In this document: piece after piece, positions 12,330 to 29,865 of the stretch | How the letters are laid out: each line of letters starts with the position of its first letter | How positions within the stretch are numbered: position 1 is the stretch's first letter | Source of the DNA: Ruminiclostridium sp. | Lineage (GTDB): Bacteria; Bacillota; Clostridia; Oscillospirales; Ruminococcaceae | Length of the DNA: 41,645 bases | Assembly (NCBI GenBank): GCA_017635095.1 | Contig: JAGBMA010000150.1 | Coordinates: forward strand, 1-41,645 | Direction: 5' to 3' | Translations under genes and position numbers: made by a program | Notes under the pieces: model-generated | What the model was told of the DNA's origin: nothing | Seen by the model: only the letters and a program-made list of their open reading frames with translations | Database searches by the model: none

Positions 12330-12374
12330 GGGACTTCACCTCCTTTTGCCCGGCTTGCCGGTTAATTTTTGCTG

Positions 12375-12620: not shown

Positions 12621-12656
12621 AGCTTTTTTCACTCCTTTCGACATTGGATTTCATCT

Positions 12657-12690
12657 CTATTATGATAGTGATGAGAGAAGAATAAGGCAA
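12657..12690 (-). promoter_or_regulatory. promoter with recurring operator motif over the -10
   Basis: Minus strand: TTGCCT (12685-12690), 17-bp spacer, TATCAT (12662-12667). The motif CTATTATGATAG (12657-12668, plus strand) covers the -10. Confidence 0.6.
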
Positions 12691-12700
12691 CGCGGAAAAT

Positions 12701-13384: not shown

Positions 13385-13428
13385 AGTTTTTTTTCTTTCA
13401 ATTAATTGTTTTTTGTTACTAATGCTTG

Positions 13429-13530
13429 AAAATGCCGATTTCGGAATTCTTCACAGAAATTTCCGTGTAAAATGCCGATTTCGGAATTTTTCATAGAAAA
13501 CCCCGCGTAAAATGCCGATTTCGGAATTTT
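13429..13530. repeat. three direct repeats with a 40-bp period
   Basis: AAAATGCCGATTTCGGAATT begins at 13429, 13469 and 13509 (the last unit is partial). Each core is a small dyad (CCGATTTCGG). The first linker holds its own dyad, CACAGAAATTTCCGTG. It lies between two minus-strand genes, just after the stop of one and before the start of the next. Confidence 0.85.
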
Positions 13531-13538
13531 GTAAAAGG

Positions 13539-14372
13539 TCAATCCAAATAAAAGTCGGTCATCCACATCAGATTATCGGCACGGCAGTTCTTTCTGTTGT
13601 TGTCCTTGAACATGACGCGGGTATAACCGAACATGTTCGGAAGGAAGGCGTTGGCTACAAGACTATAGACCTGTTTCTGCATCAATTTACCATTCGTCAT
13701 TATTCTGACTGTGCCGTTCGGTCTTATCTTGTAGAACTTGCCTTCTTTTCTTGTGTTGCGCACCCTGCCGTAATTGGAGACCTCCGCGTAAGTATCCGGT
13801 ATCCTTCTGAATTCTTCATCGGGATACAGCGGCTCTACGACCGGGAGCTTGTACTTGTTCAGTGGTTCGTTATGCCATCGCCAGACCCTGTTCCCCGCGG
13901 ACGGCTTTTTTCCTTTGCAGCATCTGTATATGCCGACCGGCTTGATGCCATAGTTCTTCGCAGCAGACAATCCGGAATGCCAGGTCTTTATCAGTTGACC
14001 GTCAATACTGTACTCGTCCACGGGCTTAGCCTTGAAGCAGTCGTCGCGGTAATAGGGCTTCGCGGAAAGATTGCAGAGTTCGTCGTTGTACGAGTCGCCG
14101 TCTTTATATACAATAGTATACCTATAATCCGGCACCTCGACAAAAGCCTCGTAAATGAGCTTGCTCAAAGACTTTATTCTTGTTGAATGCTTTGAGCGAT
14201 CGTACAGCCTCACGTGCCATTCACCGTGAAAGATGTGAAAATCCAGAATATGTCCTGTTTTGATGTTTCTGACATCGCCTGCTTTTGAGATCTCATATTG
14301 GGGAAAACCCCGGATCGGTCTCCACTCGGTTCCTAAAGAGTCTATGAGTTGCTCTTTGTCGTAATCTGTCAT
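13539..14372 (-). CDS. NUMOD4/NUMOD1 protein with degenerate HNH modules
   Basis: 277 residues. An N-terminal NUMOD4 motif (EWRPIRGFPQYEISKAGDVRN) is followed by an HNH-like stretch reading IVYKDGDSYNDELCNLS, then a NUMOD1 module (VDEYSIDGQLIKTW...IYRCCKGKK...VWRW), then a second NUMOD4/HNH-like unit ending VMFKDNNRKNCRADNLMW. In active family members the HNH core reads like VNHIDGN; here both copies lack the histidines (VYKDGD, VMFKDN). I infer a DNA-binding protein that has lost nuclease activity. ATG 14372 has AAAGGAG 5 nt upstream; the longer frame to 14429 runs through the leader hairpin. Confidence 0.75.
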   Translation of the reverse strand: MTDYDKEQLIDSLGTEWRPIRGFPQYEISKAGDVRNIKTGHILDFHIFHGEWHVRLYDRSKHSTRIKSLSKLIYEAFVEVPDYRYTIVYKDGDSYNDELCNLSAKPYYRDDCFKAKPVDEYSIDGQLIKTWHSGLSAAKNYGIKPVGIYRCCKGKKPSAGNRVWRWHNEPLNKYKLPVVEPLYPDEEFRRIPDTYAEVSNYGRVRNTRKEGKFYKIRPNGTVRIMTNGKLMQKQVYSLVANAFLPNMFGYTRVMFKDNNRKNCRADNLMWMTDFYLD

Positions 14373-14386
14373 AATTACTCCTTTCT

Positions 14387-14422
14387 GGAAGGTTCCTTTA
14401 TGTGCACCTAAAGGAACCTTCC
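14387..14422 (-). promoter_or_regulatory. perfect 14-bp leader hairpin before the NUMOD gene
   Basis: GGAAGGTTCCTTTA (14387-14400) / TAAAGGAACCTTCC (14409-14422), 8-nt loop, ending a few bases before the ribosome binding site. It may control translation or stop read-through. Confidence 0.65.
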
Positions 14423-14429
14423 GCGGCAT

Positions 14430-15454
14430 ACTGCCGAAATTGGGTTGATGTTTGACAGCAGATAAGAGTCAGGAGTCGTTCACGAGATAATTATTCTTTA
14501 CTCGCTCTTTCCGCCTCAAACATATTATGATAACAAGAATGGCGATCAAGAGATTTTTTCCGCATCTGACAAAAAGTCATAGGTCTGATGCCATTCAGAC
14601 ATATTATGATAACGGAATTGGATTTTGAGAGATTTTTCCGCCTATATAAAAAAAGGCATATGGTATAACTGCGTACCGTTAGTTTTCGACGCAAATCAGG
14701 GTATGCTGATTACCCCAAACGGATAAAGTACCGTCAGTATGCGGTGCAAATTGGGGGTATTTGAAATACCTCCAAAAAAATTACATGCCGATAGTTCGTG
14801 ATACATTATCGGGGTGTCCGGATCACCCCATACAGATATAATGACTATCTTTTTTACAAATAAATTTTCAACATGATAGTTCGTGATAGTTTTTCTGGTG
14901 ACGAAGGAATGAATATCCCTGCCTCTGGTTTTATTTTACTCTTGTCGTAATCATAATTAGTGTACAGCATTATTGACGAATGGAGATTCATCATGGGGCG
15001 GTGCTGTCAGGCGCGGTATGGCGAACTGGACGAGCAAAGATCTCGCTCCTTCAATGGTACTTGCACGACAGCACGGCTTGCTTATCATGTTCTTGTGACT
15101 GTAGATCACGGGGATGAATATGGAACTTCTGAATTCGATCATTAATGTCGAAATATGCGTGGTGAGATAATTGGGGGAGATGTCTGATCGGGGACGAGCA
15201 TGATCTCGGAAACTGATGACATAACCACTTATCTGCCCAAAACTATGGAAAAGCGGTGATTTTTTTGGTACGGAACATTAAGCACGGCGGGGGCACGCAC
15301 GCTCTGAACGCACTCCCATATGGAGCGCACTTAACAACACTTACATAGGACACCGAACATCGCCGCGGTGAGCACCTATTATAACAGAACAAAAGCGCCA
15401 GATTTTCAAGGGTAAACTATGCCCGTACGCAAATATCCGACATTTTTCGACCTA
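14430..15454. other. about 1 kb repeat-rich non-coding region
   Basis: No gene with a credible start was found. Three different sequences each occur twice: (a) a unit of about 47 bp at 14516-14563 and 14595-14641 containing TATTATGATAAC and GAGATTTTTTCCGC; (b) about 31 bp beginning GTACCGT at 14673 and 14728, each followed by a hairpin; (c) GATAGTTCGTGATA at 14790 and 14875, the first followed by the stem GGGGTG/TCACCCC. The right part (14940-15440) shows nothing recognisable. Candidate roles are iteron/origin-like sites, structured RNAs or regulatory arrays. Confidence 0.6.
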
Positions 15455-15526
15455 CAAACAATTAAGCCCCGCACAGAGACACCTTATACATAAGGTGAAC
15501 TCTGATACGGGGCTGTTTGTTTTTAT
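15455..15526 (+). terminator. large two-tier hairpin with U-run
   Basis: The outer stem AGCCCCG/CGGGGCT is extended by AAACA/TGTTT. The inner stems are CAGAG/CTCTG and ACCTTAT/ATAAGGT. A T-rich tract follows. It sits just upstream of the recombinase promoter and would block transcription from the left. Confidence 0.65.
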
Positions 15527-15536
15527 TTGTACGAGC

Positions 15537-15565
15537 TTGCTATCATAATAGGTATGACATAATAT
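15537..15565 (+). promoter_or_regulatory. promoter of second recombinase with operator motif in the spacer
   Basis: TTGCTA (15537-15542), 17-bp spacer, TAATAT (15560-15565). The motif CTATCATAATAG (15540-15551) overlaps the -35 and spacer, a classic repressor position. Confidence 0.55.
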
Positions 15566-15580
15566 GTAGGAGGGAGAAAA

Positions 15581-16450
15581 ATGTCGAAACATAAATCTCT
15601 GCGCCACCAAGTTGATACGATAATTTACGGTCAGCTACGTATCGGGCAGTCAAAATACAAGGCTCGTCGCGAGGAGGGTACAAAGTACCCTAAAGGCATA
15701 TTCTCGCACATGACTTTCGAGACCTATATGCAGCAGTGTCATCAATTCGTGAAATGGCTGAAAGAAAATGAAGAGTTACCGAAAGTCAGTGCAATCGCCG
15801 ATGCTCGAAAGTATGTCGGGATTTATCTTAACGAGTTGAAGGATAACGACTATTCGGCGTTCACAGTCCACACCGCCGCGTCCGCATTAGCAAAACTGTT
15901 TGAGTGCAGAATGGAGGATTTCGGTGTAGATTTCGACAAGCGGGAACGTAAGAGAATCAAGCGCTCCCGAAAAGATCCTGACCCGGAGTACGAACGCAAG
16001 CATCAGGGTATTGTCGATTTTTACCGTGGCTGCGGACTTCGGCGCTGTGAGATGCTGCGGCTGAAGGGTGAGGATGTGTACAGGAACGAGAGCGGCGATG
16101 TTATCGTTCATGTCCGCAAAGGCAAGGGCGGCAAGGAGCGTTTCGTGATAGCCCGCGCTCAATATGCCGAACATATTCTGAAAATGGCGGGCGCTGTCCT
16201 GCCGAAAGAGAATGTTTTTCTCACGCTCCCGGGCAAGCTTCAAAATCACAGATACCGCGGTGACTTCGCCAAAGGTCTGTACTATGAGCTTGCGCGTCCT
16301 ATCGATGAAATCCCGAAAAACGAGATATACATAATGCGAAAAGAGCGCGCGGGCGAAAAATATGACCGCGCCGCCATGCTCGAGGTGAGCCGGCAGCTCG
16401 GTCATAACAGGGTCGGGGTTATTGCGGAGAGTTATTTGTATAAGGATTGA
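15581..16450 (+). CDS. second tyrosine recombinase
   Basis: 289 residues: a SAM-like core-binding domain (about 45-115) and a compact catalytic domain. Arg in CGLRRCEMLRL, Lys in KGKGGKERFV, HRYRGDF (HxxR), LGHNR and Tyr in AESYLYKD are all present, so it should be active. It is shorter than the integrase at 10868-11950, lacks its arm-binding domain, and is not next to an att site. Possible roles are inversion, resolution of dimers, or excision of a nested element. AGGAGGGAG is 5 nt before ATG 15581. The terminator for this gene lies inside the 3' part of the convergent XRE gene. Confidence 0.85.
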   Translation: MSKHKSLRHQVDTIIYGQLRIGQSKYKARREEGTKYPKGIFSHMTFETYMQQCHQFVKWLKENEELPKVSAIADARKYVGIYLNELKDNDYSAFTVHTAASALAKLFECRMEDFGVDFDKRERKRIKRSRKDPDPEYERKHQGIVDFYRGCGLRRCEMLRLKGEDVYRNESGDVIVHVRKGKGGKERFVIARAQYAEHILKMAGAVLPKENVFLTLPGKLQNHRYRGDFAKGLYYELARPIDEIPKNEIYIMRKERAGEKYDRAAMLEVSRQLGHNRVGVIAESYLYKD

Positions 16451-16468: not shown

Positions 16469-16837
16469 TCATTTCGCTAACTCCTCAACTATCTCGCCCA
16501 GCAGAGCGCAATTCTCGGGCGAGAGTTTTTTATTGTTTGCAGTGTTATGAATACGAAAAGAATTAATAAGACGACCAACGATCTCTGTCTGGGAACTGCT
16601 AAGTCCCATAACGGAGATCGTTTCACTCTTCTCCGTTGCGAGCAATTCATCTATGGATATATTGAAAATAGCGGATATCGAACGTAAAGTGTCAAGCGGC
16701 GGGGTCGATTGATTAAGTTCATACTTGCTGACAGCGGTCACAGTCAGTTCTAGCGCCTCTGCCAGACGCTTCTGTGTGTACCCGCGGCTTTTGCGTAATT
16801 CTTTCAGTTTCTCTCCAAAATCATAAGGCGTATTCAT
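16469..16837 (-). CDS. XRE-family transcriptional regulator
   Basis: 122 residues. The N-terminal Cro/C1 helix-turn-helix is clear (FGEKLKELRKSRGYTQKRLAEALELTVTAVSKYELNQSTPPLDTLRSISAIFNISIDELL, residues about 6-64), followed by a short C-terminal region of unknown role. ATG 16837 is preferred, with GAGGGGAT upstream; the longer frame to 16873 runs into the intergenic promoter region. It is divergent from the helicase-methylase-ATPase operon, with a dyad over that operon's promoter, so it is the likely repressor of that operon and of itself. Confidence 0.88.
   Translation of the reverse strand: MNTPYDFGEKLKELRKSRGYTQKRLAEALELTVTAVSKYELNQSTPPLDTLRSISAIFNISIDELLATEKSETISVMGLSSSQTEIVGRLINSFRIHNTANNKKLSPENCALLGEIVEELAK
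16493..16530 (+). terminator. terminator of the second recombinase, embedded in the convergent gene
   Basis: CTCGCCC (16493-16499) / GGGCGAG (16517-16523), followed by AGTTTTTTATT on the plus strand. It lies within the last codons of the minus-strand XRE gene. Confidence 0.6.
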
Positions 16838-16976: not shown

Positions 16977-19900
16977 ATGGCAAAACTTGAGGAATTGACG
17001 GTCGGCAGCGTTGTAAAAGGTCTGATAAATGAGGGAAATGTGACTATCGTAGCAGTCACATGGTACGGTGATTCAGTATTACAGGTGTCGTTCAAGGACG
17101 ACAAAGAACAGCTTGCGAGCCAACTTGTATACCGCGAAGACGAGAATAACCTTGAAATACAGAAAAGCAGCCTTCCGTGGTGCTTTGACGCAGATGGAAG
17201 CGTAATGCGTCTTGCATCGGAAGCGTACAGAATAAACCTTGCACACATATTTGACCCGTATCTTGCGGTACATACGTCGTCGATCGAGCCGTTGCCGCAC
17301 CAGATATCGGCTGTTTACCAGGAAATGCTGCCAAAGCTCCCGCTTCGGTATATACTCGCGGATGACCCCGGTGCCGGCAAGACGATCATGACCGGATTGC
17401 TTATAAAAGAGCTCATCATCCGCGGCGACCTCAAACGCTGTCTTATCGTATCGCCGGGAAGTCTATCGGAGCAGTGGCAGGATGAGCTTTACAGTAAATT
17501 TCATTTGAAATTTGACATACTTACAAATGACCGCATAGAATCTGCAGTCGGCGGGAACGTGTTTGCCGAGAGCAATTTTCTTATCGCAAGGCTTGATAAG
17601 CTTGCAAGAAATGAAAGTCTGCAGGAAAAGCTCAAGATCACGGACTGGGATCTTGTGGTCATAGACGAGGCTCACAAGATGTCTGCGACTGTGTGGGGCG
17701 GAGAGATAAAATATACCGCTCGATTCAAGCTCGGCAGAATGCTGTCAGAGCTTACTCGGCATATGCTTCTGCTGACAGCGACTCCGCATAACGGAAAGAA
17801 CCAGGACTTCCAGCTGTTCCTGTCGCTTATTGATCAGGACAGGTTCGAGGGCGTTACCCGCTCAAGCAATCAGTCCATAGATACTGCGGACATTATGCGC
17901 CGTCTTGTCAAAGAAGAACTGCTGAAATTTGACGGAACACCGCTTTTCCCCGAAAGACGTGCATATACAGTAAATTACGATCTGTCCCCGCAGGAAGCTG
18001 AACTATACCGCGCCGTGACCGATTATGTACAGGAAGAGTTTAACCGTGCCGAGCGGCTTGACGAGAGCCACAGAAGCACGGTCGGCTTTGCGTTGACTAT
18101 TTTACAGAGAAGGCTCGCTTCTTCCCCGGAAGCAATATATCAATCCCTGCACCGCAGAAAAGAACGCCTTGAACACAGGCTTGCCGAGGAACGTATCGGA
18201 AGACATGATGAAGATATAGTATCAGCCACATCTCAGAACGAGTATGATGAGGACGATATGCCCTCCGAGGAAATGGAGGAAGAAGAGGAGCGCGTAGCAG
18301 ATCAGGCTTCTGCTTCCACTACAATAAAAGAGCTCGAAGCCGAGATCGCTACCCTCAGAAAACTGGAAACGCTTGCCGGCGAGGTGCGGACAAGCGGTAA
18401 GGACAAGAAATGGGAGGAGCTGTCATTACTCCTACAGGATAACGAGTGTATGTACTCGCAGGACGGACAGCGCGAGAAGCTGATCATCTTCACCGAGCAC
18501 CGCGATACACTGCGCTATCTCTCGGATAAGATACGTTCGCTGCTCGGGGACGACAACTGCGTTGTCACCATTCACGGCGGTATGACAAGAGACGAGCGCC
18601 GCAAGGTCGAAGCCCTGTTCAAGCAGGATAAGGACGTTCGCATACTTATCGCGACGGACGCGGCGGGCGAAGGTATCAACCTCCAGCGCGCGCATTTAAT
18701 GGTAAACTATGACCTACCGTGGAACCCGAACCGTCTTGAACAGCGTTTCGGACGAATCCACCGTATCGGACAGACCGAGGTCTGCCACCTGTGGAATCTC
18801 GTATCGAAGGAGACCCGCGAAGGTGCGGTATTCCAGCGGCTATTTGAAAAACTCGAAGAAGAACGCGAAGCACTGGGCGGAAAGGTATTCGACATACTCG
18901 GAAAGATCATGTTCGACAACCGTCCGCTGCGCGAACTGCTGATCGAGGCGATACGCTACGGAAACGACCCTGAGGTGCGTAAAAAGCTGCAGCAGTCAGT
19001 CGATAACTCGATAGATATTGAGAAAATACGAAAACTTATAGACGAGAACGCGCTTACCGAAGACACAATGGATGTGGGCAAGGTCATGGCGATACGCGTG
19101 GAAATGGAGCGCATCGAGGCGCACAAGCTCCAGCCGCACTTCATCGAATCGTTCTTCATCGAGGCTTTCGGACATCTCGGCGGCAAGCTATACAAGCGTG
19201 AACACGGCCGCTACGAGATCACTTATGTTCCAGGAAAGATACGCAACCGCGATATGCAGATAGGCTTCGGAGAATCTGTACTGACGAAATACGAGCGTAT
19301 ATGCTTCGATAAAGCCGACTGCAACTTCCCTGGGCTTGCTCCCGCGGCACTGATATGTCCGGGACACCCGCTTCTCGAAGCGACGAGCGACCTTATCCGT
19401 GAGCAATACCGCAGCATTATGAAACAGGGCGCGGTGTTCATCGACGAGAACGACTTCGGCACGGACGCACGCCTGTTGTTCTATATCGAGGACTGCATAC
19501 AGGACGGCGTTGTGCTCCCGAACGGCTCGAAGCGCGTCATATCCAAGAATGTGCATTTCGTTGAGCTGAAAGAGGACGGAACTGCAATAAATGCAGGCTA
19601 CGCGCCGTATCTTGATTATCGCAGCGCGAACGAAGATGAATACAAGTCGATACGCGAATTTATAGACACGCAGGACTGGCTCACCAAAAATGTCGAAGAA
19701 ACTGCAAAAAGATATGCTATTTCGGAAATAATCCCCCGGCATTTCTCGCAAGTACGTGAGCATCGACAGAAGATGTGCGATAAAATAGCGAAAGCCGTGA
19801 AATCAAGACTCACGGCTGAAATACAGTATTGGGATTTCAGGGCAGCCGACCTGAAAGAAAAGGAGAATGCCGGAAAGGTCAATGCCAAGCTGAACTCCGA

Positions 19901-20483
19901 TAATGCACACAGAAAAGCCGAGGAGCTTGAAGCAAGAATGAACCGTCGGCTTGCAGAGATAGAAAAAGAAAAAGCAGTATCTGCCGCTCCTCCAATAATA
20001 GTCGGCGGAGCGCTAGTGATGCCGAAAGGTTTGCTCCAAAAGCTCACTGCATCTGAAACGCCCAATATGTTCGGAAGCGGCGACAGAAAGGCTGTTGAGC
20101 TTGCTGCAATGAAGGCAGTCACGGATATAGAAAACTCTCTCGGTTTTATCCCGAAGGACGTGAGCGCGCAGAACGTTGGTTACGACATTGAATCCGAGAT
20201 ACCGGAGGATAAGCGCAACTGCACCGAAAGCAGTATCCGCTTCATTGAGGTCAAGGGCAGGACAAAGGGCGCCGATACCGTTACTGTCACGAAGAATGAG
20301 ATACTGACTGCACTCAACAAGCCCGAATCGTACATTCTTGCAATGGTCGAAGTGGACGGCGATTGCACAAAAACGGTATATCTGCGCTGTCCGTTCTCTG
20401 TAAAACCTGATTTTGCAACTACAGGCATTACCTACAACATTAACGAGCTTATAGGTTCATCGGAAGTATTATTGGAAAGGTAA
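16977..20483 (+). CDS. SNF2/RapA-like helicase with C-terminal DUF3883 domain
   Basis: 1168 residues. After an N-terminal beta-rich region comes an SF2 helicase core: Walker A DDPGAGKTI (Lys135), DEAH (230-233), LLLTATPHNG, and the C-terminal lobe with ATDAAGEGINL and the SNF2 signature GRIHRIGQ (592-599). Coiled acidic and lysine-rich segments follow. The end, with FIEVKGRTKG near 1089, matches DUF3883, a domain of nuclease-like fold seen in defence helicases such as DISARM DrmD and relatives. Its expected role is ATP-driven DNA translocation in a restriction-like complex. ATG 16977 is chosen because GAGGGG precedes it. First gene of a three-gene operon; next start 10 bp after the stop. Confidence 0.9.
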   Translation: MAKLEELTVGSVVKGLINEGNVTIVAVTWYGDSVLQVSFKDDKEQLASQLVYREDENNLEIQKSSLPWCFDADGSVMRLASEAYRINLAHIFDPYLAVHTSSIEPLPHQISAVYQEMLPKLPLRYILADDPGAGKTIMTGLLIKELIIRGDLKRCLIVSPGSLSEQWQDELYSKFHLKFDILTNDRIESAVGGNVFAESNFLIARLDKLARNESLQEKLKITDWDLVVIDEAHKMSATVWGGEIKYTARFKLGRMLSELTRHMLLLTATPHNGKNQDFQLFLSLIDQDRFEGVTRSSNQSIDTADIMRRLVKEELLKFDGTPLFPERRAYTVNYDLSPQEAELYRAVTDYVQEEFNRAERLDESHRSTVGFALTILQRRLASSPEAIYQSLHRRKERLEHRLAEERIGRHDEDIVSATSQNEYDEDDMPSEEMEEEEERVADQASASTTIKELEAEIATLRKLETLAGEVRTSGKDKKWEELSLLLQDNECMYSQDGQREKLIIFTEHRDTLRYLSDKIRSLLGDDNCVVTIHGGMTRDERRKVEALFKQDKDVRILIATDAAGEGINLQRAHLMVNYDLPWNPNRLEQRFGRIHRIGQTEVCHLWNLVSKETREGAVFQRLFEKLEEEREALGGKVFDILGKIMFDNRPLRELLIEAIRYGNDPEVRKKLQQSVDNSIDIEKIRKLIDENALTEDTMDVGKVMAIRVEMERIEAHKLQPHFIESFFIEAFGHLGGKLYKREHGRYEITYVPGKIRNRDMQIGFGESVLTKYERICFDKADCNFPGLAPAALICPGHPLLEATSDLIREQYRSIMKQGAVFIDENDFGTDARLLFYIEDCIQDGVVLPNGSKRVISKNVHFVELKEDGTAINAGYAPYLDYRSANEDEYKSIREFIDTQDWLTKNVEETAKRYAISEIIPRHFSQVREHRQKMCDKIAKAVKSRLTAEIQYWDFRAADLKEKENAGKVNAKLNSDNAHRKAEELEARMNRRLAEIEKEKAVSAAPPIIVGGALVMPKGLLQKLTASETPNMFGSGDRKAVELAAMKAVTDIENSLGFIPKDVSAQNVGYDIESEIPEDKRNCTESSIRFIEVKGRTKGADTVTVTKNEILTALNKPESYILAMVEVDGDCTKTVYLRCPFSVKPDFATTGITYNINELIGSSEVLLER

Positions 20484-20492
20484 AGAATAGTC

Positions 20493-23246
20493 ATGGCAAT
20501 AAAGAAACTTATAGAAGTGGCGCTGCCGCTTGAAAAGATAAACGCGGAATCCGCAAGAGAAAAGTCTATACGCCACGGTCACCCGTCCACCCTGCATCTG
20601 TGGTGGGCGAGGCGACCGCTTGCGGCTGCACGCGCTGTAATATGGTCGTCACTCGTTGATGACCCGTCATCGCACCCCGAGGAATTCCCGACCGAGGAGG
20701 AGCAGAACAAGGAGCGCGATCGGCTTTTCGGCATACTCGAACAGCTTGTGGTATGGGAAAACTCAAACAATGCCGAAGTCCTTGCAAAAGCAAAAGCCGA
20801 GATAATGAAATCAACCGGCGGGAATCCGCCTCCGCTGCTTGACCCGTTTGCGGGCGGCGGCGCGATACCGCTTGAAGCGCAGAGGTTAGGTCTCGAAGCT
20901 CACGCGCATGACCTGAACCCTGTCGCGGTCATGATAAACAAGGCTATGATCGAGATACCGCCGAGGTTCGCGGATAAGCCGCCGGTGAATCCGCGGGACA
21001 GCGCACAGCAGAGTGTAGGCGCGTGGTCAGGGACAAAGGGGCTTGCAGCCGATGTCCGCTATTACGGAGAATGGATGCGCGACGAGGCGTTCAGACGCAT
21101 AGGTCATCTGTACCCGAAGGTGAAAGTGCCGGACGATCAGGGCGGCGGCGAGGCTACCGTTATCGCATGGATATGGGCGAGAACGGTCAAGTGCCCTAAC
21201 CCGGCGTGCGGGTGTCAGATGCCGCTTTTACGATCGTTTGATCTTTCTACAAAGGCAGGCAAACAAGCACATATTGAGGCCGATGCAAATGGCGATCATT
21301 TTATTTATACAGTAAAAAGTGGCAAAAGTAAAGCAAATGGTACAGTTGATCGCTCCGGTGCGAAGTGCTTGAAATGTGGCGAGCCTGTTGAATTTGATTA
21401 TATACGAAATGAAGCTAAAGAAAGCCGAATGAAAGCAGACCTAATGGCTGTTGTTGCAGAGGGTGAAAAGGGAAGGTTATATATATCGCCTGACCATGAG
21501 CAATTATCGGTGGCACAGGTTGATGAACCTGAAAACGCACTGCAAACAAATCTCCCGGATAAAGCTTTGGGATTTAGAGTACAACTTTATGGTATGGTGC
21601 AGCATAAACAGCTTTTCACCAACCGTCAGCTCACCGCCCTCACCACATTCAGCGAGCTTGTCTCCGAGGCACAGGCAAAAGCCGAACAGGACGCGATAAA
21701 AGCGGGTCTGCCGGATGATAACATACCGATAGCCGAGGGCGGAACTGGTGCAAAGGCTTATGGTGAAGCGATAGGAGTGTATCTGGCGTTTGTTGTTGAT
21801 AAGATGACAGATTATCATTCTTCCATTTGCTCATGGCATACGAGTGGAGAAAAAATGAGAAATACTTTTGGAAGACAAGCCATTCCTATGGTGTGGGATT
21901 ACGCAGAGGGGAACCCTTTTTGCCTTTCATCAGGTAGTTTTGCAAATATGCTGGAATGGGTAGAAAAATGTATTTTACAATTCCCGCAAGCAGCATATAA
22001 TGGTGAAGTTAGACAGTTTGACGCACAAAGTGATTGTGAATTAAGGGGCATAATGGTTTCGACCGATCCGCCCTACTATGATAATATCGGGTATGCAGAC
22101 CTATCTGATTATTTTTATGTTTGGCTTCGGCAGTGTTTAAAAAATACCTATCCCAAAGTATTCAGAACTATGCTTGTTCCAAAAGCCGAAGAACTTATAG
22201 CTACTCCTTACAGGCACGAAGGCAGCGTAAAGAAAGCACAAGAATTTTTTGAGGACGGAATGTTCCATACCTGTCAACAGATATACAAATATGCGAGAGA
22301 AGATATTCCGGTAACAATATATTACGCATATAAGCAAAGCGATACGGACAGCGAAAAGAATCAGACTGCTTCAACAGGCTGGGAAACGATGTTAAGCGCG
22401 ATTATTAAAGCCGGATTTACTATCACAGGTACATTACCAATGAGAACAGAAATGGCAAATCGTTCAATTGCAAGTGGCACCAACGCTCTCGCGTCCTCAA
22501 TCGTCCTCGTCTGCCGCAAACGTCCGGAAGATGCGTCGAGCGTTACCCGCCGGAACTTCATCAACGAGCTTAAACGCGATCTTAAACCGGCTCTTCAAAA
22601 ACTCCAGAGCAGCAATATCGCGCCTGTCGATCTCGCACAGTCGGCTATCGGCCCCGGTATGGCGGTGTTCTCGAAGTATAAGTCTGTGCTCGAAGCCGAC
22701 GGAACGGAAATGACGATACGCACGGCTCTGCAGATAATCAATCAGGAGCTTGACCTTTACTTCAACGAGCAGGATACCGCGCTCGACAAGGATAGCCGCT
22801 TCTGCGTCGATCTCTACACGCAGTTTGCGTTCAACGACGTGAAATTCGGCGATGCAGACACGCTTGCAAGAGCGAAGAATACCTCTGTTGACACGCTCAA
22901 AAACACAGGTGTGGTATTTGCCGAAAAGGGCGTTGTAAGGCTGCTTGGGCGTGACGAGATAAACGAGACCAAAAATGAAAATATCCTGTGGCTGCTCACA
23001 CAGCAGATGACCCGCGAGTTTGAAAACGGCGGCATACAGAAATGCGCTGATTTTATCCTTACAGCAAGCGACGGTGCTTGTGAACAGGCAAAAGCCCTCG
23101 CGTACAGGCTGTTCACTATCGCGGACAGGAAGGGCTGGAACGCCGAGGCGTATGCGTACAACAACCTTGTGACCTCGTGGGCTGCGATAAAGGAAGCAGC
23201 GACGAGACTCGGCGGTTCGGCACAGCAGATAACATTTGATGATTGA
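20493..23246 (+). CDS. adenine-specific DNA methylase, DUF1156/Zn-ribbon family
   Basis: 917 residues. An N-terminal DUF1156 signature (EKSIRHGHPSTLHLWWARRPLAA split over residues about 20-45), a SAM-binding motif LLDPFAGGGAIPLEA (near 116), a zinc-ribbon with CPNPACGC (near 233-241) and CLKCGE (near 290), and the catalytic DPPYY (525-529). This matches the COG1743 type (PglXI of BREX type 3 is of this kind). It probably methylates adenine to mark self DNA. Base composition is mosaic: roughly 21235-21600 and 21740-22480 are AT-rich with different codon choice, while the flanks are GC-rich. The stop and the next start are about 10 bp apart, so translation is coupled. Confidence 0.9.
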   Translation: MAIKKLIEVALPLEKINAESAREKSIRHGHPSTLHLWWARRPLAAARAVIWSSLVDDPSSHPEEFPTEEEQNKERDRLFGILEQLVVWENSNNAEVLAKAKAEIMKSTGGNPPPLLDPFAGGGAIPLEAQRLGLEAHAHDLNPVAVMINKAMIEIPPRFADKPPVNPRDSAQQSVGAWSGTKGLAADVRYYGEWMRDEAFRRIGHLYPKVKVPDDQGGGEATVIAWIWARTVKCPNPACGCQMPLLRSFDLSTKAGKQAHIEADANGDHFIYTVKSGKSKANGTVDRSGAKCLKCGEPVEFDYIRNEAKESRMKADLMAVVAEGEKGRLYISPDHEQLSVAQVDEPENALQTNLPDKALGFRVQLYGMVQHKQLFTNRQLTALTTFSELVSEAQAKAEQDAIKAGLPDDNIPIAEGGTGAKAYGEAIGVYLAFVVDKMTDYHSSICSWHTSGEKMRNTFGRQAIPMVWDYAEGNPFCLSSGSFANMLEWVEKCILQFPQAAYNGEVRQFDAQSDCELRGIMVSTDPPYYDNIGYADLSDYFYVWLRQCLKNTYPKVFRTMLVPKAEELIATPYRHEGSVKKAQEFFEDGMFHTCQQIYKYAREDIPVTIYYAYKQSDTDSEKNQTASTGWETMLSAIIKAGFTITGTLPMRTEMANRSIASGTNALASSIVLVCRKRPEDASSVTRRNFINELKRDLKPALQKLQSSNIAPVDLAQSAIGPGMAVFSKYKSVLEADGTEMTIRTALQIINQELDLYFNEQDTALDKDSRFCVDLYTQFAFNDVKFGDADTLARAKNTSVDTLKNTGVVFAEKGVVRLLGRDEINETKNENILWLLTQQMTREFENGGIQKCADFILTASDGACEQAKALAYRLFTIADRKGWNAEAYAYNNLVTSWAAIKEAATRLGGSAQQITFDD

Positions 23247-23256
23247 GGTGGAAGAA

Positions 23257-26200
23257 ATGGCACAGAATCATATTATCGTTCAGGAAGCGTTCGCGAAGAT
23301 GCTTCCGTTTATGGCAGGATACATCGGTCGCGAGTTAAGCAGAAAGTACGGTGACAGCTGGTGGGACGAGGTGTGGGATACGCTTTCCGACCAGCGCGAT
23401 GATCTCCCGACCGGCGGGGATTACAGCTTTCTTGTGGATTCGCTCGATGTTGCGAACTGTCTGCGGCTTATCGACCGTAAGTGGAATGACGTATTCAGAA
23501 TTAAGCTCGCACTCGATTACAGAACGTGGAGCAAGGAGCTTATGGGTGTCCGTAACAAGGTATCACATAAGGGCTCCGAAGATTTTGACGAAAACTATAC
23601 ATGGCGCGCGTTGGACACAATCGCGCTGCTTTGTGAAGCGTTCGATGACGAAACGGCGGAAGAAATACGCACGATGCAGCGCGAACTGCGCTACGGTGCA
23701 GCGGGCGGTGCCTCCGAGATAAAAGCCGCGCCTGCTCCTGTTCAGACCGAGGTTTCTGGTATTATAAGCAAAGTGGGCTCCGGGCTTCCGAGCTGGCGCG
23801 ATATAATGCAGCCGCACCCGGATGTTGCGGAGGGTCGCTACAAGCATGCGGAGTTCGCTGCCGATCTTGCGCAGGTCGCACGCGGCGAGGGTTCGTTCGA
23901 GTACCGCGACCCGGTCGAGTTCTTCAAGCGCACATACATAACCGACGGTATGGCAGGACTGCTTGTGCAGGCACTGCAGCGTATCACCGAACAGGGCGGC
24001 GAGCCTGTTATACAGCTGAAAACCGCGTTCGGCGGCGGTAAGACGCACAGTATGCTCGCGTTGTATCATCTGCTCCGGGCGAATGTTCAGCTCGACAAGA
24101 TATCGAGTGTGAAGCCCGTACTTGACAGAGCGGGGCTGAATACGCTGAAAAAGGCGAATATTGCCGTGATCGTGGGAACTGCCGTTGACCCGACAAAATC
24201 CCGCCGTCCGCAGAATTTCCCGGGTATTACGATAAATACGATATGGGGCGAGATTGCGGCACAGCTTGCCGAGTCGAGCGGTAACCCGAAGCTGTATGAC
24301 TATGTGAAGGAAGCGGACAAGAAGGGTGTGTCGCCCGGATCAGCTGCCTTGAAGGAAATGCTCGACGCGTGCGGTCCGTGCCTTATCCTTATGGACGAGC
24401 TTGTGGCATACGCAAAGAAGTTGTACGGAGTTGACGGACTCCCGGCGGGTTCGTTCGATAACTTCATCACATTCATTCAGGAGATAACCGAGGCAGCGCG
24501 TGCAAGCAAGAACAGCCTTGTTGTGGCATCTATCCCCGAATCCGATATCGAGGTCGGCGGTGAAGCCGGAAAGATCGCGCTCGAAAGCATCGAACATACA
24601 TTTGGTCGTATGGAATCTATCTGGAAGCCTGTTGCGGCAAACGAGGGCTTTGAGGTAGTAAGGCGCAGGCTGTTCCTTGACTGTAAGGATACGGAGGCCT
24701 GTGAGAAGGTTTGTTCGGAATTCAGCAATATGTACCGCAGCAACAAGACAGATTTCCCCATCGAGGTTTCCGAGGTCGCGTACAAGGACAGAATGCTTTC
24801 GTGCTATCCGATACATCCGGAAGTATTCGACAGGCTGTACAATGACTGGTCAACGCTCGAAAAGTTCCAACGTACAAGAGGTGTACTGCGACTTATGGCG
24901 GCAGTTATTCACGAGCTGTGGATGGGTGCCGATGCGAGCCCGATGATCATGCCCGGTTCTGTGCCGCTTGCGATACAGAACGTGTCGTATGAGCTTACAA
25001 GATACCTTGACGATAACAATTGGAGCGCTATCATAGACAGTGAGATTGACGGCAAGAATTCTGCACCATACAATCTCGAAAAGAGCCAACCGCGTTTCGG
25101 TCAGACATACGCAGCACGAAGAGTGGCAAGGACTGTATTTCTCGGAAGCGCGCCGTCTGCACGCGGTCAGGCTATACGCGGACTTGAGGCATCAAGAGTG
25201 CGTCTCGGAACGATTATGCCGGGTGAAAATATACCCGTGTTCAACGATGCTCTGAATTCGTTACAGTCAACGCTGACATATCTCTACGCTAACAGCGCCG
25301 GGGATCGTTTCTGGTTCGATACGCGCCCGACGCTCCGCAAAACTGTGGAGGAACGCGCTTCTCAGTACACCGACAATGATGTGATATATGAGATAAACGA
25401 ACGGCTCAAAAAGGAGAGAACCGATTCCCGTTTCTCCGGACTTGTCAAGAGCCCGTCATCTTCTCTTGATGTTACAGATGAACAGAACGTGAAACTCGTT
25501 ATCCTTGACCCCAGGAGCACATATAAGGCAAGCGCTGGGATGAAGAGCCCGGCATTTGAAAAAACACTTGATATTATCAATAATCGTGGTACTTCACCGC
25601 GTATATATCGCAATATGATTGTTTTCGTTGCACCCGATCAGGACACAATTCAGTCGCTGAAGGACGGAGTGCGTATGTATCTTGCATGGAAGTCGGTGAG
25701 AGACGACAGCGAGGAGCTTAACCTTGATGCTACGCAGAACAAAGAAACAATAAAATGCCTCGAAAAAGCTGACGAAACCGTAAGATCTCGTATCGGTGAA
25801 ACGTATTGCTGGCTTATTTCTCCTTATATTGATATGCAGGATGATATAAAGGAAATAAAGTGGACAGCCTCGAACATCCGCGGTGGAAATGATAGTATAG
25901 CTGCAAGAGCCGCGAATAAGCTGGAACAGGACGAACTTCTTATAAAAAAGTGGGCTCCGGTGATGCTTAAAATGGAGCTTGACAATGTTTTGTGGAAAGA
26001 CAGCGACTCTATTCCCGTTAAGAAATTATGGGATTATCTGTGCACCTACTGCTATCTTCCGAGGCTGATGAACTATTCTGTGCTTGAGGAAACAATTCTC
26101 TCCGGACTTAATTCTCCAGACTATTTCGGTTATGCGGAAGGCGTATCCGGCGACAGATTTATCGGCTTGAAATTCAATCAGTTTGTTGGTTTGGTTGACA

Positions 26201-26601
26201 TATCGGGGTATCTTGTCAAGCCTGATATTGCAAGTAAGCAGCTTCTTGATGAAATGAGAAGCAGAGGCTCTGAGCCAGCTGTGCCTGAAACAACACCTCC
26301 TTCTCCTCAGGTGGTTGTAAAGCCCGATCCCGATAAACCAGTCTCGGAAACATCACCACAAATAAATAAGCAAACCCATTTCTTTATGTCTGCAAAGCTC
26401 GATAATACGAGAATAAATCGCGATGTACAGACCTTTATGCAGGAAATCATCAGTCACCTCAGCGACGAAGATGATTGTAACCTCGAAATAACATTGGAGG
26501 TATCTGCGTCAGCACAGAATGGCTTCTCGCAGCCCGTTGTCAGAACGGTATCGGAGAACTGCAAGACTCTTAAGATCAGTAACTTCGGATTTGAGGAATA
26601 A
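23257..26601 (+). CDS. Swt1-type HEPN domain fused to DUF499 P-loop ATPase
   Basis: 1114 residues. Residues about 1-140 form a HEPN domain with the RNase-type motif RNKVSH (Arg99, His104). From about 190 a DUF499 ATPase follows, with Walker A FGGGKTH (Gly259-Thr263) and Walker B LILMDEL (Asp380, Glu381). Large ATPases of this type (BrxC/PglY-like) occur with SNF2 helicases and DUF1156 methylases in restriction-like systems. The HEPN motif suggests RNA cleavage as a toxic output, or an adaptor role. ATG 23257 has GAGGTGG 5 nt upstream; the in-frame ATG at 23236 lies inside the methylase gene and lacks a site. Last gene of the operon, followed by a strong terminator. Confidence 0.88.
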   Translation: MAQNHIIVQEAFAKMLPFMAGYIGRELSRKYGDSWWDEVWDTLSDQRDDLPTGGDYSFLVDSLDVANCLRLIDRKWNDVFRIKLALDYRTWSKELMGVRNKVSHKGSEDFDENYTWRALDTIALLCEAFDDETAEEIRTMQRELRYGAAGGASEIKAAPAPVQTEVSGIISKVGSGLPSWRDIMQPHPDVAEGRYKHAEFAADLAQVARGEGSFEYRDPVEFFKRTYITDGMAGLLVQALQRITEQGGEPVIQLKTAFGGGKTHSMLALYHLLRANVQLDKISSVKPVLDRAGLNTLKKANIAVIVGTAVDPTKSRRPQNFPGITINTIWGEIAAQLAESSGNPKLYDYVKEADKKGVSPGSAALKEMLDACGPCLILMDELVAYAKKLYGVDGLPAGSFDNFITFIQEITEAARASKNSLVVASIPESDIEVGGEAGKIALESIEHTFGRMESIWKPVAANEGFEVVRRRLFLDCKDTEACEKVCSEFSNMYRSNKTDFPIEVSEVAYKDRMLSCYPIHPEVFDRLYNDWSTLEKFQRTRGVLRLMAAVIHELWMGADASPMIMPGSVPLAIQNVSYELTRYLDDNNWSAIIDSEIDGKNSAPYNLEKSQPRFGQTYAARRVARTVFLGSAPSARGQAIRGLEASRVRLGTIMPGENIPVFNDALNSLQSTLTYLYANSAGDRFWFDTRPTLRKTVEERASQYTDNDVIYEINERLKKERTDSRFSGLVKSPSSSLDVTDEQNVKLVILDPRSTYKASAGMKSPAFEKTLDIINNRGTSPRIYRNMIVFVAPDQDTIQSLKDGVRMYLAWKSVRDDSEELNLDATQNKETIKCLEKADETVRSRIGETYCWLISPYIDMQDDIKEIKWTASNIRGGNDSIAARAANKLEQDELLIKKWAPVMLKMELDNVLWKDSDSIPVKKLWDYLCTYCYLPRLMNYSVLEETILSGLNSPDYFGYAEGVSGDRFIGLKFNQFVGLVDISGYLVKPDIASKQLLDEMRSRGSEPAVPETTPPSPQVVVKPDPDKPVSETSPQINKQTHFFMSAKLDNTRINRDVQTFMQEIISHLSDEDDCNLEITLEVSASAQNGFSQPVVRTVSENCKTLKISNFGFEE

Positions 26602-26994: not shown

Positions 26995-27068
26995 TTGAAG
27001 CAAGCAAAACGCCAAGTTCTCCCAATATGTGATTCCTGTGAATTATAAGCCATGAGAGGAGTATGAAA

Positions 27069-27755
27069 ATGCTTGATAATGATTTAGTTAAATCATTTGA
27101 AGAATCAGTTTTAGCTGATTCTTTAGATTTGGCATCGGATTTGGCTGAGGTTGGGTTGGATTCGATTTTGGACGATGGAGTAATAAAAGATATTCCAATC
27201 ATTTCGGCAACTATAGGTGTTTTCAAAATAGGATCTTCAATAAAAGAACGACATTACATTAAGAAACTGGTACGTTTTATTGATAGCTGTAACAAAGGTA
27301 TAGTAGATAAGGATATGAAAGAGAGAATAAAAACTAAATTTCTCGATGAAAAGAAAAGTAAAAAAGAATTAGAACATATCCTTTTAATAATTGATCGCTT
27401 TATTGAAGAAGAAAAAGCTGATATGCTTGCAAAAATTTATATTGCATATTTAGATAGCAAAATCGATTGGAGTCAATTTGTAGCATATTCAGTAGTACTT
27501 GATAGATTTCTGCCCGGAGACTACAGTTATTATAGTTCTAGTTTTAACTTTAATGTACAAAACAACTCAGAGATAGATATTCTCTTAAGGTTATCGGGAT
27601 TAGGTTTGTTAATTGAAGAAACTCGAAAAGAGGCTCGACCATTGATAAATGATCAACTTGTGCAAAAACATTTTGAAAACAACAAAGATAAACGAGTATA
27701 TGTTAAAACAGATTTCGGTAGAATTCTAACATCTATCTTGGGTGGTTTCTATTAA
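27069..27755 (+). CDS. hypothetical protein with central hydrophobic segment
   Basis: 228 residues, not recognised. A hydrophobic glycine-containing stretch (IPIISATIGVFKIGSSI, residues about 38-54) is followed by a basic helical region and a DNxx-free C-terminal half with aromatic residues. It is not a canonical signal peptide; the segment could insert in or touch the membrane. ATG 27069 is preferred, with AGGAG 7 nt upstream, because ATG 27063 is only 1 nt from the site. AT-rich, like the next two genes. Position before a nuclease-like gene and a CD-NTase makes it a candidate accessory or effector protein. Confidence 0.65.
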   Translation: MLDNDLVKSFEESVLADSLDLASDLAEVGLDSILDDGVIKDIPIISATIGVFKIGSSIKERHYIKKLVRFIDSCNKGIVDKDMKERIKTKFLDEKKSKKELEHILLIIDRFIEEEKADMLAKIYIAYLDSKIDWSQFVAYSVVLDRFLPGDYSYYSSSFNFNVQNNSEIDILLRLSGLGLLIEETRKEARPLINDQLVQKHFENNKDKRVYVKTDFGRILTSILGGFY

Positions 27756-27818
27756 TGGAGTATAAAAAAGCAATGAATAACCTAATATCGTTTTTCGTAA
27801 CGAAAGGAGACATATATA

Positions 27819-28559
27819 ATGAGTACTAGCGTTACATTAAAATCATTATTTCAAGCGTTGCAAAAAGAAATGATATCTAATGCTGAATTGAGTCGTCAAT
27901 TGGATCATCCGACGGATAAAGGAGATAATACTGAAATAAGCTGGGTTGATTGGTTTATAAAATACCTTCCTAATAGATATGAAGCTGCGAAAGCTACTAT
28001 TATAGATTGCAACAGCAAAATTAGCAATCAAATTGATGTAGTGATTTATGACAGACAATATTCCTATCTTGTGTGTAATCATAATGGCATATTGTACATC
28101 CCAGCCGAAAGTGTATATGCAGTCTTTGAAGTTAAACAAAATTTAAATAAAGCACATATGGAGTATGCTGGAGATAAAGCAGAAAGCGTTCGTAATCTTC
28201 ACAGGACATCAGCGCCAATACCACATGCTGGTGGTGAATTTCCTCCTAAAACTCCGCACCGGATAATTGCTGGTATACTTACAACCAATTCGGATTGGAA
28301 GAAACCGTTTTCAGTCCCATTTATGAATTGTATTTCAAAATATAGCGATTTACAACAGATTGACTGTGGGTGCGTTCTTAATGGTGGTGCATTTTACTAT
28401 GATTATAAAAATAGAATGTTGAAAACGAGCAGTTCGGAAGATAGTTTAGTATATTTCTTTCTTCAGTTACTTATTGATTTGCAAAAGATAGGCACTGTTC
28501 CTGCAATTGATCTAAATGAGTATATTAAAGCATTGACGATTAACGAGGAGAAAAAATAG
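27819..28559 (+). CDS. DUF6602 family, PD-(D/E)XK nuclease-like protein
   Basis: 246 residues. Conserved family features are visible: HPTDKGDNTE near residue 27, QIDVVIYDRQYS near 70, YIPAESVYAVFEVKQ near 92-106, and the LHRTSAPIPHAGGE stretch. Glu, Asp and ExK in these positions fit a PD-(D/E)XK nuclease core, so I infer a DNA-cleaving or nucleic-acid-binding role; the activity is not established to my knowledge. AAAGGAG is 9 nt before the ATG. The stop codon is 1 nt from the next start, so it is translated together with the CD-NTase, and may be its effector. Confidence 0.75.
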   Translation: MSTSVTLKSLFQALQKEMISNAELSRQLDHPTDKGDNTEISWVDWFIKYLPNRYEAAKATIIDCNSKISNQIDVVIYDRQYSYLVCNHNGILYIPAESVYAVFEVKQNLNKAHMEYAGDKAESVRNLHRTSAPIPHAGGEFPPKTPHRIIAGILTTNSDWKKPFSVPFMNCISKYSDLQQIDCGCVLNGGAFYYDYKNRMLKTSSSEDSLVYFFLQLLIDLQKIGTVPAIDLNEYIKALTINEEKK

Positions 28560-28560
28560 G

Positions 28561-29865
28561 ATGGCAGCACAGAAGGATTTTGATTTGTTTTTAAGTAACA
28601 TTGAACCTAGTGAAAGCATAATCCAATATATTAGTAATGTGCAAGAAAATCTGAGAGAATACCTTGAAACTCATAATTATTATAAAACGATCCACAACAA
28701 TACATTTCTCTCTGGGTCGTACGCGAAACATACATCTATTCGTCCATCTAAAAATGACGAAAAACGAGATGTGGATATTATAGTTGTTACAAATTATGAC
28801 GATTCCAAGGATTCTGTAGAAGTGCTTAATGAATTGTGTGATGTGCTAAAAGAATCAGAGATCTATAATACAGCTACAGTTCAACATCATTCTGTGGGAA
28901 TTGAAATGGAAAAGATTAGTATAGATGTTGTTCCTGTAATTAGTGACATCAGCGATAAAGATTTATATTATATTGGTGATTCTGAAATTGGGAATTGGAC
29001 AAATACAGACCCAAAAGGACATATGGAATGGTCAACTACAATTAATAAGAAATATAATAAAGCGTATAAACCTCTTGTTAAAATATTTAAATGGTGGCGT
29101 AGAACAAATTGTCCGAAAGGAATAAAATATCCAAAGGGGATAACTTTGGAAAAACTCATAGCAGATAATCTTGGTGATTCATCTGCTTCGACTGAAGCTT
29201 TCTTTATTGAGACGATGAATAACATTGTTTCAAATTATAAAGAATCCTACGTTAATAAAGGGCTTGTTCCTATAATTGATGACCCTTCGACCAAGATCAA
29301 AGACAACAATCTTTTAGATGAGTACCCTGCTGAAGAATTTGGCTCTTTCGTTAATAATATCCAAGACCATGTTAATTTGCTAAATAATGAAGGCACCGAT
29401 AACAATACTTGGCAAAAAATACTGGGGTCAGAGTTTCCAGCTTCATCAAATAAAAAATCCGAAAGTAATGCTCTTGCATGTTTGATCGCTAATCACAGGC
29501 AGAAGATGCCATGGTCGTTTTCGAGAGGAGGGGCAGTTTTTATAGCTCTCCAAGTTATGGGCAAAGACGGGAAATGTGTTGATTATGACAATAACGGAGA
29601 GCCGTTAAATAAGGGCTGTTCTCTTAGATTTAGGGCTATTACAGGTGTAAAACCTCCATTTATAATAAAATGGCAAATAACAAACACGGGAGAAGAAGCT
29701 AGAAAAGCAGGATGTTTGCGAGGAAATTTTGAAGATTCAGATGATGGTCCTACCGCCAAAAAAGAAGTAACTCAATATACCGGGTGCCATTCAGTTCAGT
29801 GTTTTGTAATTAAAAATCGTGTATGTGTTGCAAAAAGTAAAGACTATATTATAAATATATCTTGA
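28561..29865 (+). CDS. CD-NTase (SMODS nucleotidyltransferase) with C-terminal AGS-C sensor domain
   Basis: 434 residues. The nucleotidyltransferase core has FLSGSYAKHTS (Gly52, Ser53), the metal pair DVD (Asp70, Asp72) and the third acid SIDVVP (Asp122), all intact. The C-terminal part (about 330-434: KPPFIIKWQITNTGEEARKAG...GCHSVQCFVI) matches the AGS-C domain thought to sense ligands. Enzymes of this group make cyclic oligonucleotide signals in CBASS-type antiphage immunity and switch on a nearby effector. No Cap2/Cap3 ubiquitin-like genes and no SAVED or transmembrane effector were seen nearby; the DUF6602 gene immediately upstream is the best partner. A well-placed GAGGAG precedes the start. 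Confidence 0.88.
   Translation: MAAQKDFDLFLSNIEPSESIIQYISNVQENLREYLETHNYYKTIHNNTFLSGSYAKHTSIRPSKNDEKRDVDIIVVTNYDDSKDSVEVLNELCDVLKESEIYNTATVQHHSVGIEMEKISIDVVPVISDISDKDLYYIGDSEIGNWTNTDPKGHMEWSTTINKKYNKAYKPLVKIFKWWRRTNCPKGIKYPKGITLEKLIADNLGDSSASTEAFFIETMNNIVSNYKESYVNKGLVPIIDDPSTKIKDNNLLDEYPAEEFGSFVNNIQDHVNLLNNEGTDNNTWQKILGSEFPASSNKKSESNALACLIANHRQKMPWSFSRGGAVFIALQVMGKDGKCVDYDNNGEPLNKGCSLRFRAITGVKPPFIIKWQITNTGEEARKAGCLRGNFEDSDDGPTAKKEVTQYTGCHSVQCFVIKNRVCVAKSKDYIINIS

What the first reader, a model, noticed from the sequence alone, without database searches (positions are those of the whole stretch)
16977..26601. Helicase, Zn-ribbon methylase and HEPN-ATPase operon: BREX-type-3-like parts without PglZ
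One promoter drives a SNF2 helicase with DUF3883, a DUF1156 adenine methylase and a Swt1-HEPN/DUF499 ATPase, tightly spaced or coupled. From established families, BREX type 3 pairs a SNF2 helicase and a COG1743 methylase with a large P-loop ATPase, and DISARM uses a DrmD-like helicase with a methylase. Here PglZ, BrxA/B/F and DrmA/B/C are all absent, and the ATPase has gained an intact RNase-type HEPN motif (RNKVSH, 99-104). It may be a minimal self/non-self system whose output is RNA cleavage instead of phosphatase-dependent exclusion. Related cassettes may already be known as predicted defence loci; the three-gene form with HEPN looks little described.
Basis: partly seen in the sequence, partly recalled or inferred. 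Interest (0 to 1): 0.82.

Follow-up and report, generated by a model that had tools for sequence, protein, structure and literature searches.

The report
Known Hma defence operon with HEPN
This stretch of bacterial DNA carries an intact three-gene anti-virus operon (a helicase-nuclease, a DNA methylase, and an ATPase fused to a likely RNA-cutting domain) of a kind already named and catalogued in print, so it is a good example of a known system and not a new one.

Summary
The genes match PADLOC's Hma system end to end: HmaA 1639.9 bits, HmaB 1176.5, HmaC 1072. HmaC's extra N-terminus is Pfam HEPN_Swt1, 83 bits, cut-off 27.5. The architecture is in print: HEPN-DUF499 with a SNF2-DUF3883 helicase (2013, PMC3710099), Hma (2021, PMC8565338) and 'Type-1 BREX-related' (2026, PMC12839542), where 1370 of 2446 taxa carry the HEPN form and a suicide-effector role is already proposed. 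PglZ, BrxB and MZB gave no match in the host genome.

Added here: HEPN keeps its catalytic R in 84 of 84 and H in 83 of 84 distinct sequences, window included. The helicase's DNase residues are kept in all 38 of 40 rows that reach them. So RNA cleavage would be added to DNA cleavage, not swapped for it. HEPN is old in the family, not a recent gain.

Oddest thing seen, outside the window: four related operons carry a second, apparently dead methylase between HmaB and HmaC.

The parts
16977..20483 (+). HmaA: SNF2 helicase with C-terminal NOV_C/DUF3883 nuclease domain (in-frame GTG at 16959)
   Evidence: PADLOC HmaA 1639.9 bits; Pfam SNF2, Helicase_C, NOV_C
20094..20381 (+). NOV_C/DUF3883 domain, PD-(D/E)xK-type residues D (VGYDIE) and ExK (IEVKGR)
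   Evidence: Pfam 68.8 bits, cut-off 22.1; residues kept in all 38 of 40 rows that reach the domain
20493..23246 (+). HmaB: DUF1156 amino-methyltransferase (DPFAGGG, DPPYYD)
   Evidence: PADLOC HmaB 1176.5 bits; DUF1156 109 bits; motifs
21192..21377 (+). Cysteine ribbon in the insert between methylase motifs I and IV (C234, C239, C292, C295)
   Evidence: C234, C239 and C295 in 38, C292 in 47 of 47 aligned rows; zinc binding inferred
23236..26601 (+). HmaC: HEPN_Swt1-DUF499 AAA+ ATPase (TTG 23236; alternative ATG 23239 or 23257)
   Evidence: PADLOC HmaC 1072 bits over residues 184-1121; DUF499 113.9 bits
23290..23640 (+). HEPN_Swt1 domain
   Evidence: Pfam 83 bits, cut-off 27.5; the genome search gives the same coordinates; all-helical model, pLDDT 94.5
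23551..23568 (+). HEPN Rx4H motif RNKVSH
   Evidence: R in 84 of 84, H in 83 of 84 distinct sequences
16469..16837 (-). Divergent Cro/C1-type HTH gene, possible regulator (inferred; not a conserved Hma part)
   Evidence: HTH_3 58.2 bits; no match at E 1e-4 among frames of 60+ aa of the loci then held, many of which do not reach upstream of HmaA
16874..16902 (+). Promoter-like site upstream of HmaA (consensus match only)
   Evidence: 10 of 12 matches

Best explanation
It is an intact Hma (Type-1 BREX-related) operon in the HEPN-fused form. Most likely working: HmaB methylates a DNA motif, probably at an amino group (N6-adenine by its DPPY motif), and so marks self DNA. HmaC, a BrxC-like AAA+ ATPase, assembles with HmaA on unmarked DNA. 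The HmaA helicase-nuclease then translocates on and cuts foreign DNA. The HEPN domain of HmaC is held silent until engagement of foreign DNA or ATP turnover releases it, when it cleaves RNA as a second, cell-sacrificing output. Shown here: gene content and order, domains, and intact key residues of the helicase, DNase, methylase, ATPase and HEPN centres. Inferred, and largely as proposed in PMC12839542: complex formation, trigger, HEPN activity and phage defence.
For: End-to-end PADLOC matches. Pfam domains. Motifs. DNase residues kept in all 38 of 40 helicase rows that reach them. HEPN R 84 of 84 and H 83 of 84, against a median column identity of 0.50. Gene order A-B-C in 41 of 41 loci with all three hits. 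Patchy presence, 0 of 24 other congeners, and a neighbourhood of CBASS-like and AbiL-like genes. The same model is in print.
Against: No experiment here. Foldseek found no significant solved match for the HEPN model (0 of 102 at E <= 0.001; a HEPN protein, 4nqf, is only rank 29), and no solved relative of HmaC was found by sequence. One relative, L042, has lost the HEPN histidine. PADLOC's paper calls HmaB an m5C methylase, against its DPPY motif. Some members lack HEPN altogether (13 of 115 family rows on the tree), so HEPN is not needed in every member.
Confidence: 0.7

Rival explanations
1. A new minimal BREX-3-like system whose output is RNA cleavage instead of any DNA output.
For: PglZ, BrxB and MZB gave no match in the genome. 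HmaA resembles DrmD and BrxH helicases (411.6 and 342.6 bits). The HEPN motif is intact.
Against: End-to-end match to a named system, described in 2013, 2021 and 2026. An apparently intact DNase domain is also present.
Confidence: 0.03
2. HEPN is the main protective output and the helicase-nuclease mostly scans for unmarked DNA or licenses it: a methylation-gated RNase abortive system.
For: Near-invariant HEPN catalytic residues. HEPN in 15 of the 16 strong HmaC matches of the phylum sample whose N-terminus can be read.
Against: The DNase residues are equally conserved, also in the two HEPN-less rows that reach them, L065 and L068. Some family members lack HEPN.
Confidence: 0.2
3. The HEPN domain is not an active RNase here but a dimerisation or RNA-sensing part of the ATPase.
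For: No assay; no significant solved structural match; L042 without the histidine. PMC3710099 infers RNA binding for the inactive eukaryotic Swt1 HEPN (passage).
Against: R, N and H are conserved far above the domain's median; the bacterial Ava_2192 type is listed as active in PMC3710099.
Confidence: 0.07

Closest known systems
Hma (PADLOC; PMC8565338), alias Type-1 BREX-related system (PMC12839542), HEPN-fused form (Ava_2192 type, PMC3710099)
   Same: All three genes, their order, all named domains, the N-terminal HEPN fusion and the C-terminal DUF3883 nuclease on the helicase.
   Different: Nothing of substance found; this copy is compact, with no gene inserted between A, B and C, as in a minority of relatives (11 of 41 without a gap over 400 bp).
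BREX type 3 (BrxC, BrxX-type methylase, BrxHII, PglZ)
   Same: Homologous helicase, methylase and ATPase according to PMC12839542; HmaA matches BrxH models.
   Different: No PglZ and no BrxB found in the genome; the BrxC model only at E 3.6e-05; BrxA search inconclusive.
DISARM
   Same: HmaA is similar to DrmD (411.6 bits).
   Different: Below NCBI's DrmD cut-off (369.3 against 610); no MZB domain found in the genome.
Anti-phage set of DUF499, DUF1156 and phospholipase D proteins (NF042962, NF042963, NF042964)
   Same: Homologous ATPase, methylase and helicase parts.
   Different: Far under all three cut-offs (183/1200, 128.2/1000, 162.6/1100 bits).

Membership tests
Hma (PADLOC) | HmaA, HmaB and HmaC encoded together | tested here: met
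   Best models at 1639.9, 1176.5 and 1072 bits, near full length; adjacent, same strand
Type-1 BREX-related (BR) | DUF499 ATPase, DUF1156 N6-methylase, SNF2 helicase, no further core gene | tested here: met
   no gene between the three. DUF3780 (Type 2) was not searched by itself
Type-1 BREX-related (BR) | C-terminal active PD-(D/E)xK nuclease on the helicase | tested here: met
   NOV_C 68.8 bits; D and ExK present. Activity itself not tested
Type-1 BREX-related (BR) | HEPN at the N-terminus of the ATPase (in 1370 of 2446 taxa) | tested here: met
   HEPN_Swt1 83 bits, same frame as DUF499
Type-1 BREX-related (BR) | N-terminal TUDOR on the helicase, C-terminal RRM on the ATPase | not tested
   No Pfam match reported for either; no structure made of those parts
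BREX type 3 | PglZ | tested here: not met
   0 matches in the own genome, controls ring in 2 of 14
BREX type 3 | BrxA and BrxB | tested here: inconclusive
   BrxB 0 matches, controls ring in 3 of 14; BrxA 0 matches but no control rang
DISARM | DrmB (MZB domain) and DrmD over cut-off | tested here: not met
   MZB 0 matches, controls ring in 8 of 14; DrmD 369.3 against 610
DUF499/DUF1156/phospholipase D anti-phage set (NF042962-NF042964) | Scores over the curated cut-offs | tested here: not met
   183/1200, 128.2/1000, 162.6/1100 bits
Hma as a phage defence system | Protection against phage | not testable with these tools
   Bench work; PMC12839542 cites a Halomonas study for the helicase (passage), which is not held

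The most novel reading that the evidence does not exclude
In the HEPN-fused Hma systems, unmethylated DNA licenses two obligate outputs at once, DNA cutting by HmaA and RNA cutting by HmaC, so that a restriction-modification system has a built-in, methylation-gated RNase arm and not merely a backup. In some sister operons a catalytically dead second methylase (HmaB2) may serve as the target-reading subunit of that switch.
Probability: 0.25. Interest if true: 0.55.

Novelty: already known. Interest (0 to 1): 0.2.

Why it matters
The system is catalogued and widespread, so this copy adds an instance. It matters as a test bed: no paper seen here reports a test of the HEPN arm of Hma (searches: open-licence library only), and a compact operon with both nuclease centres apparently intact lets single-residue mutants say whether DNA or RNA cleavage protects. 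The HmaB2 variant seen in relatives, if confirmed, would be a new part of a known system.

Tried and rejected
Rejected: BREX type 3 and DISARM membership. Rejected: HEPN as a substitute for a lost DNase; both are intact together (38 of 40 rows reach the nuclease; of these 36 are HEPN-bearing, window included, and 2 are not, L065 and L068). Rejected: HEPN as a recent gain in this genome.

Rows dropped before counts: the first tree held L084 as HEPN-less, but its frame starts at the contig edge, so one search left it out; L155, L156 and L162 were left out there for the same reason. L108 is not in the HEPN counts or trees because its HEPN lies in a separate frame. L017 is cut by its contig and L027 is a fragment; neither is in the trees. 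Limits: the trees are quick ones without bootstrap and with long branches (L081, L086 and others), and the 80 loci were kept by rank against a query that holds HEPN (of 541 relatives found there), so they favour HEPN-bearing rows.

Led nowhere: Foldseek of the confident HEPN model (no significant match); sequence search of solved structures; a second copy of the tmRNA 3' end as island boundary (only the tmRNA itself); a conserved HTH partner; Hma in the phage records (no match); the unknown gene at 27063 (86 plasmid records, none covering 80%; the 8 rows listed are hypothetical proteins).

Full report
Observation. Three long reading frames lie head to tail on the + strand at 16959/16977-20483, 20493-23246 and 23236-26601, with 9 bp between the first two and an overlap between the last two if the TTG or the first ATG starts the third. 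Pfam gives SNF2, Helicase_C and NOV_C (DUF3883) on the first, DUF1156 on the second, and HEPN_Swt1 (83 bits, cut-off 27.5) plus DUF499 on the third. Key motifs of helicase, DNase, methylase, ATPase and HEPN are present. The single-promoter claim rests on one consensus match among 43 in the region.

What it is. PADLOC's models give HmaA 1639.9 bits over residues 7-1169, HmaB 1176.5 bits over 3-915 and HmaC 1072 bits over 184-1121: end-to-end matches to one named system. The HmaC model begins after the HEPN domain, so a PADLOC hit alone does not show the fusion.

What was already in print. (a) PMC3710099 (2013; passages seen) lists Ava_2192: HEPN of the Swt1 family fused to a DUF499 AAA+ ATPase, in operon with restriction-modification parts in which the SNF2 helicase is fused to DUF3883, marked active. 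(b) PMC7641849 (2020; passages) describes the COG1743, DUF499 and SWI2/SNF2-nuclease operon. (c) PMC8565338 (2021; passages) names Hma: 1638 instances, 26 phyla. (d) PMC12839542 (2026; abstract and outline, section 29, one part of the reference list, and passages; [quoted passage not shown] Relatives on plasmids often bear the annotation 'Swt1 family HEPN domain-containing protein' (139 records match, 51 with 80% coverage). A study of the nuclease on the Snf2 helicase in Halomonas (PMC11232893) is known to me only by its title in that reference list and its citation; the paper is not held. No paper seen tests the HEPN arm; the searches were made, over an open-licence library only.

Absent parts. 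PglZ, BrxB and MZB gave no match in the window's genome while control genomes rang. BrxA gave none either, but its controls were silent. The assembly is in 236 contigs and 98.29% complete, so a missed gene is possible. BrxF, DrmA and DrmC were not searched genome-wide.

Relatives. In 398 genomes of the window's phylum, 73 match the HmaC model at E <= 0.001; 17 places besides the window reach 800 bits. L017 is cut by its contig; of the other 16, HEPN is present in 15 and absent in L001. The 11 weaker DUF499 proteins used as outgroup (L019-L026, L028-L030) carry no match to this HEPN profile. In the window's own genus 0 of 24 other genomes, some incomplete, carry HmaC, and a methylase search in the class found 3 of 391 genomes, the window's own included: a patchy pattern that suggests transfer. 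The window's phylum is probably Bacillota: two same-phylum loci (L015, L004) are identical over the HmaC core to named Bacillota records (L034, L052). The host is not otherwise named.

HEPN. Eighty-seven HEPN sequences from HmaC proteins, window included (84 distinct), keep the arginine in 84 of 84, the asparagine in 80 and the histidine in 83; the exception is L042 (RNKIAP). The median column identity is 0.50. The AlphaFold2 model is all-helical and confident (pLDDT 94.5, pTM 0.88), but Foldseek finds no significant solved match (0 of 102 at E <= 0.001; the HEPN protein 4nqf is rank 29 at E 4.7), so solved structures do not independently confirm the fold. A similar HEPN (51% identical over residues 6-158) heads a different protein in a same-order genome (L113), which fits a transferable module.

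DNase and HEPN together. Of 40 aligned helicases 38 reach the NOV_C domain and all 38 keep the aspartate and the ExK; 36 of the 38 are HEPN-bearing.

History of HEPN. On a quick maximum-likelihood tree of the HmaC core, HEPN left out (126 rows: 102 with HEPN, 13 without, 11 outgroup), the state needs 4 changes, at least 3 of them forced by starred branches. HEPN is thus old in this family, with few changes. Such counts cannot tell gain from loss, and the tree has long branches and no bootstrap.

Methylase. HmaB has DPFAGGG (117) before DPPYYD (525). In 47 aligned rows the D of DPPY is kept in 46 and PPY in 47; C234, C239 and C295 in 38 each, C292 in 47. DPPY is the amino-methyltransferase type (N6-adenine or N4-cytosine; family knowledge, recalled), which agrees with PADLOC's model name but not with the 'm5c' wording of the 2021 paper.

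Surroundings. Upstream is a divergent Cro/C1-type HTH gene, with no match at E 1e-4 in the relatives' frames. Downstream are an unknown gene, a NucC-like nuclease and an SMODS/AGS_C cyclase (CBASS-like), then an AbiL-like pair. Further upstream lie integrase-like genes, HNH-type endonuclease genes and the tmRNA gene. This reads as a defence island.

A variant outside the window. Gene order is A-B-C in 41 of 41 relatives in which all three were hit on one locus. In 11 of the 41 no gap exceeds 400 bp; some other gaps are split frames of HmaA or HmaB (L041, L055, L085), and several hold other defence genes: of 10 frames tested, HEC-01 models in L033 (two), PtuA and PtuB of Septu in L036, PDC-S19 in L044, Old in L088 and a partial TmtA match in L104, while one (L041) was the rest of HmaA and two were HmaB-like. 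In L035, L037 and L049 the insert between HmaB and HmaC is a second HmaB-like protein of 742-773 residues, 37-43% identical to the window's HmaB, with the first D of DPPY replaced by E, motif I altered in its glycines (DPFSGFG, DPFCGFG, DPFAGGA) and about the last 150 residues missing. A fourth, with T for D, lies between HmaB and HmaC on a viral-collection contig (L117 and L146 are the same contig). In one search, 119 frames hit HmaB or HmaB2; motif IV was located in 92, and 6 of these did not begin with D: these four operons (one counted twice) and L068 (Y, otherwise ordinary). I take HmaB2 for a dead methylase partner, perhaps a target-reading subunit. That is inference; six related search words in PMC12839542 showed no mention of it, and no wider literature search was made for it.

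Verdict. Interest in the finding itself is low. The open, testable part is which of the two nuclease arms protects the cell.

Noticed in passing
L035:7746-9995, L037:7507-9732, L049:7678-9996, L117:5977-8313 (same contig as L146): A second HmaB-like protein (HmaB2) sits between HmaB and HmaC in four related operons; in all four the first residue of the catalytic DPPY is replaced (E, E, E, T). In the first three motif I is altered and the C-terminal part is missing. Likely a dead methylase partner.
   Followed up: partly
27063-29865 +: CBASS-like set directly downstream: an unknown 230-aa protein, a NucC-like endonuclease (322.6 bits) and an SMODS/AGS_C cyclase. The unknown protein has no Pfam match over cut-off and only partial matches to plasmid proteins, the listed ones hypothetical.
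   Followed up: partly
30803-32709 -: AbiL-like pair: an AAA_21 ATPase (AbiLi 268.4 bits) and a RloB-like protein (AbiLii 93.2 bits) on the minus strand.
   Followed up: no
9214-16450: tmRNA gene followed by an HNH gene, a tyrosine integrase (10871-11950), a NUMOD4/HNH homing-endonuclease-like gene (13542-14429) and a second, weaker integrase-like gene (15581-16450): probable island at the tmRNA, but no second copy of the tmRNA end was found in the window.
   Followed up: partly
L057:6175-13498: HmaA and HmaC lie next to each other with no HmaB match anywhere in the 23.5-kb locus: a possible methylase-less Hma, or the methylase lies elsewhere.
   Followed up: no
L113:223-1950 -: HEPN_Swt1 51% identical to the window's, fused to a different C-terminal part without a Pfam match: the HEPN module is shared between protein families.
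   Followed up: partly
L033, L036, L044, L088, L104 (gaps between Hma genes): Other defence genes inside Hma operons: HEC-01, Septu PtuA/PtuB, PDC-S19, Old and a TmtA-like match (10 frames tested).
   Followed up: partly
L042:6581-7030: HmaC of a Bathycorpusculum MAG has RNKIAP in place of the HEPN Rx4H motif, the only loss of the histidine in 84 distinct sequences.
   Followed up: no
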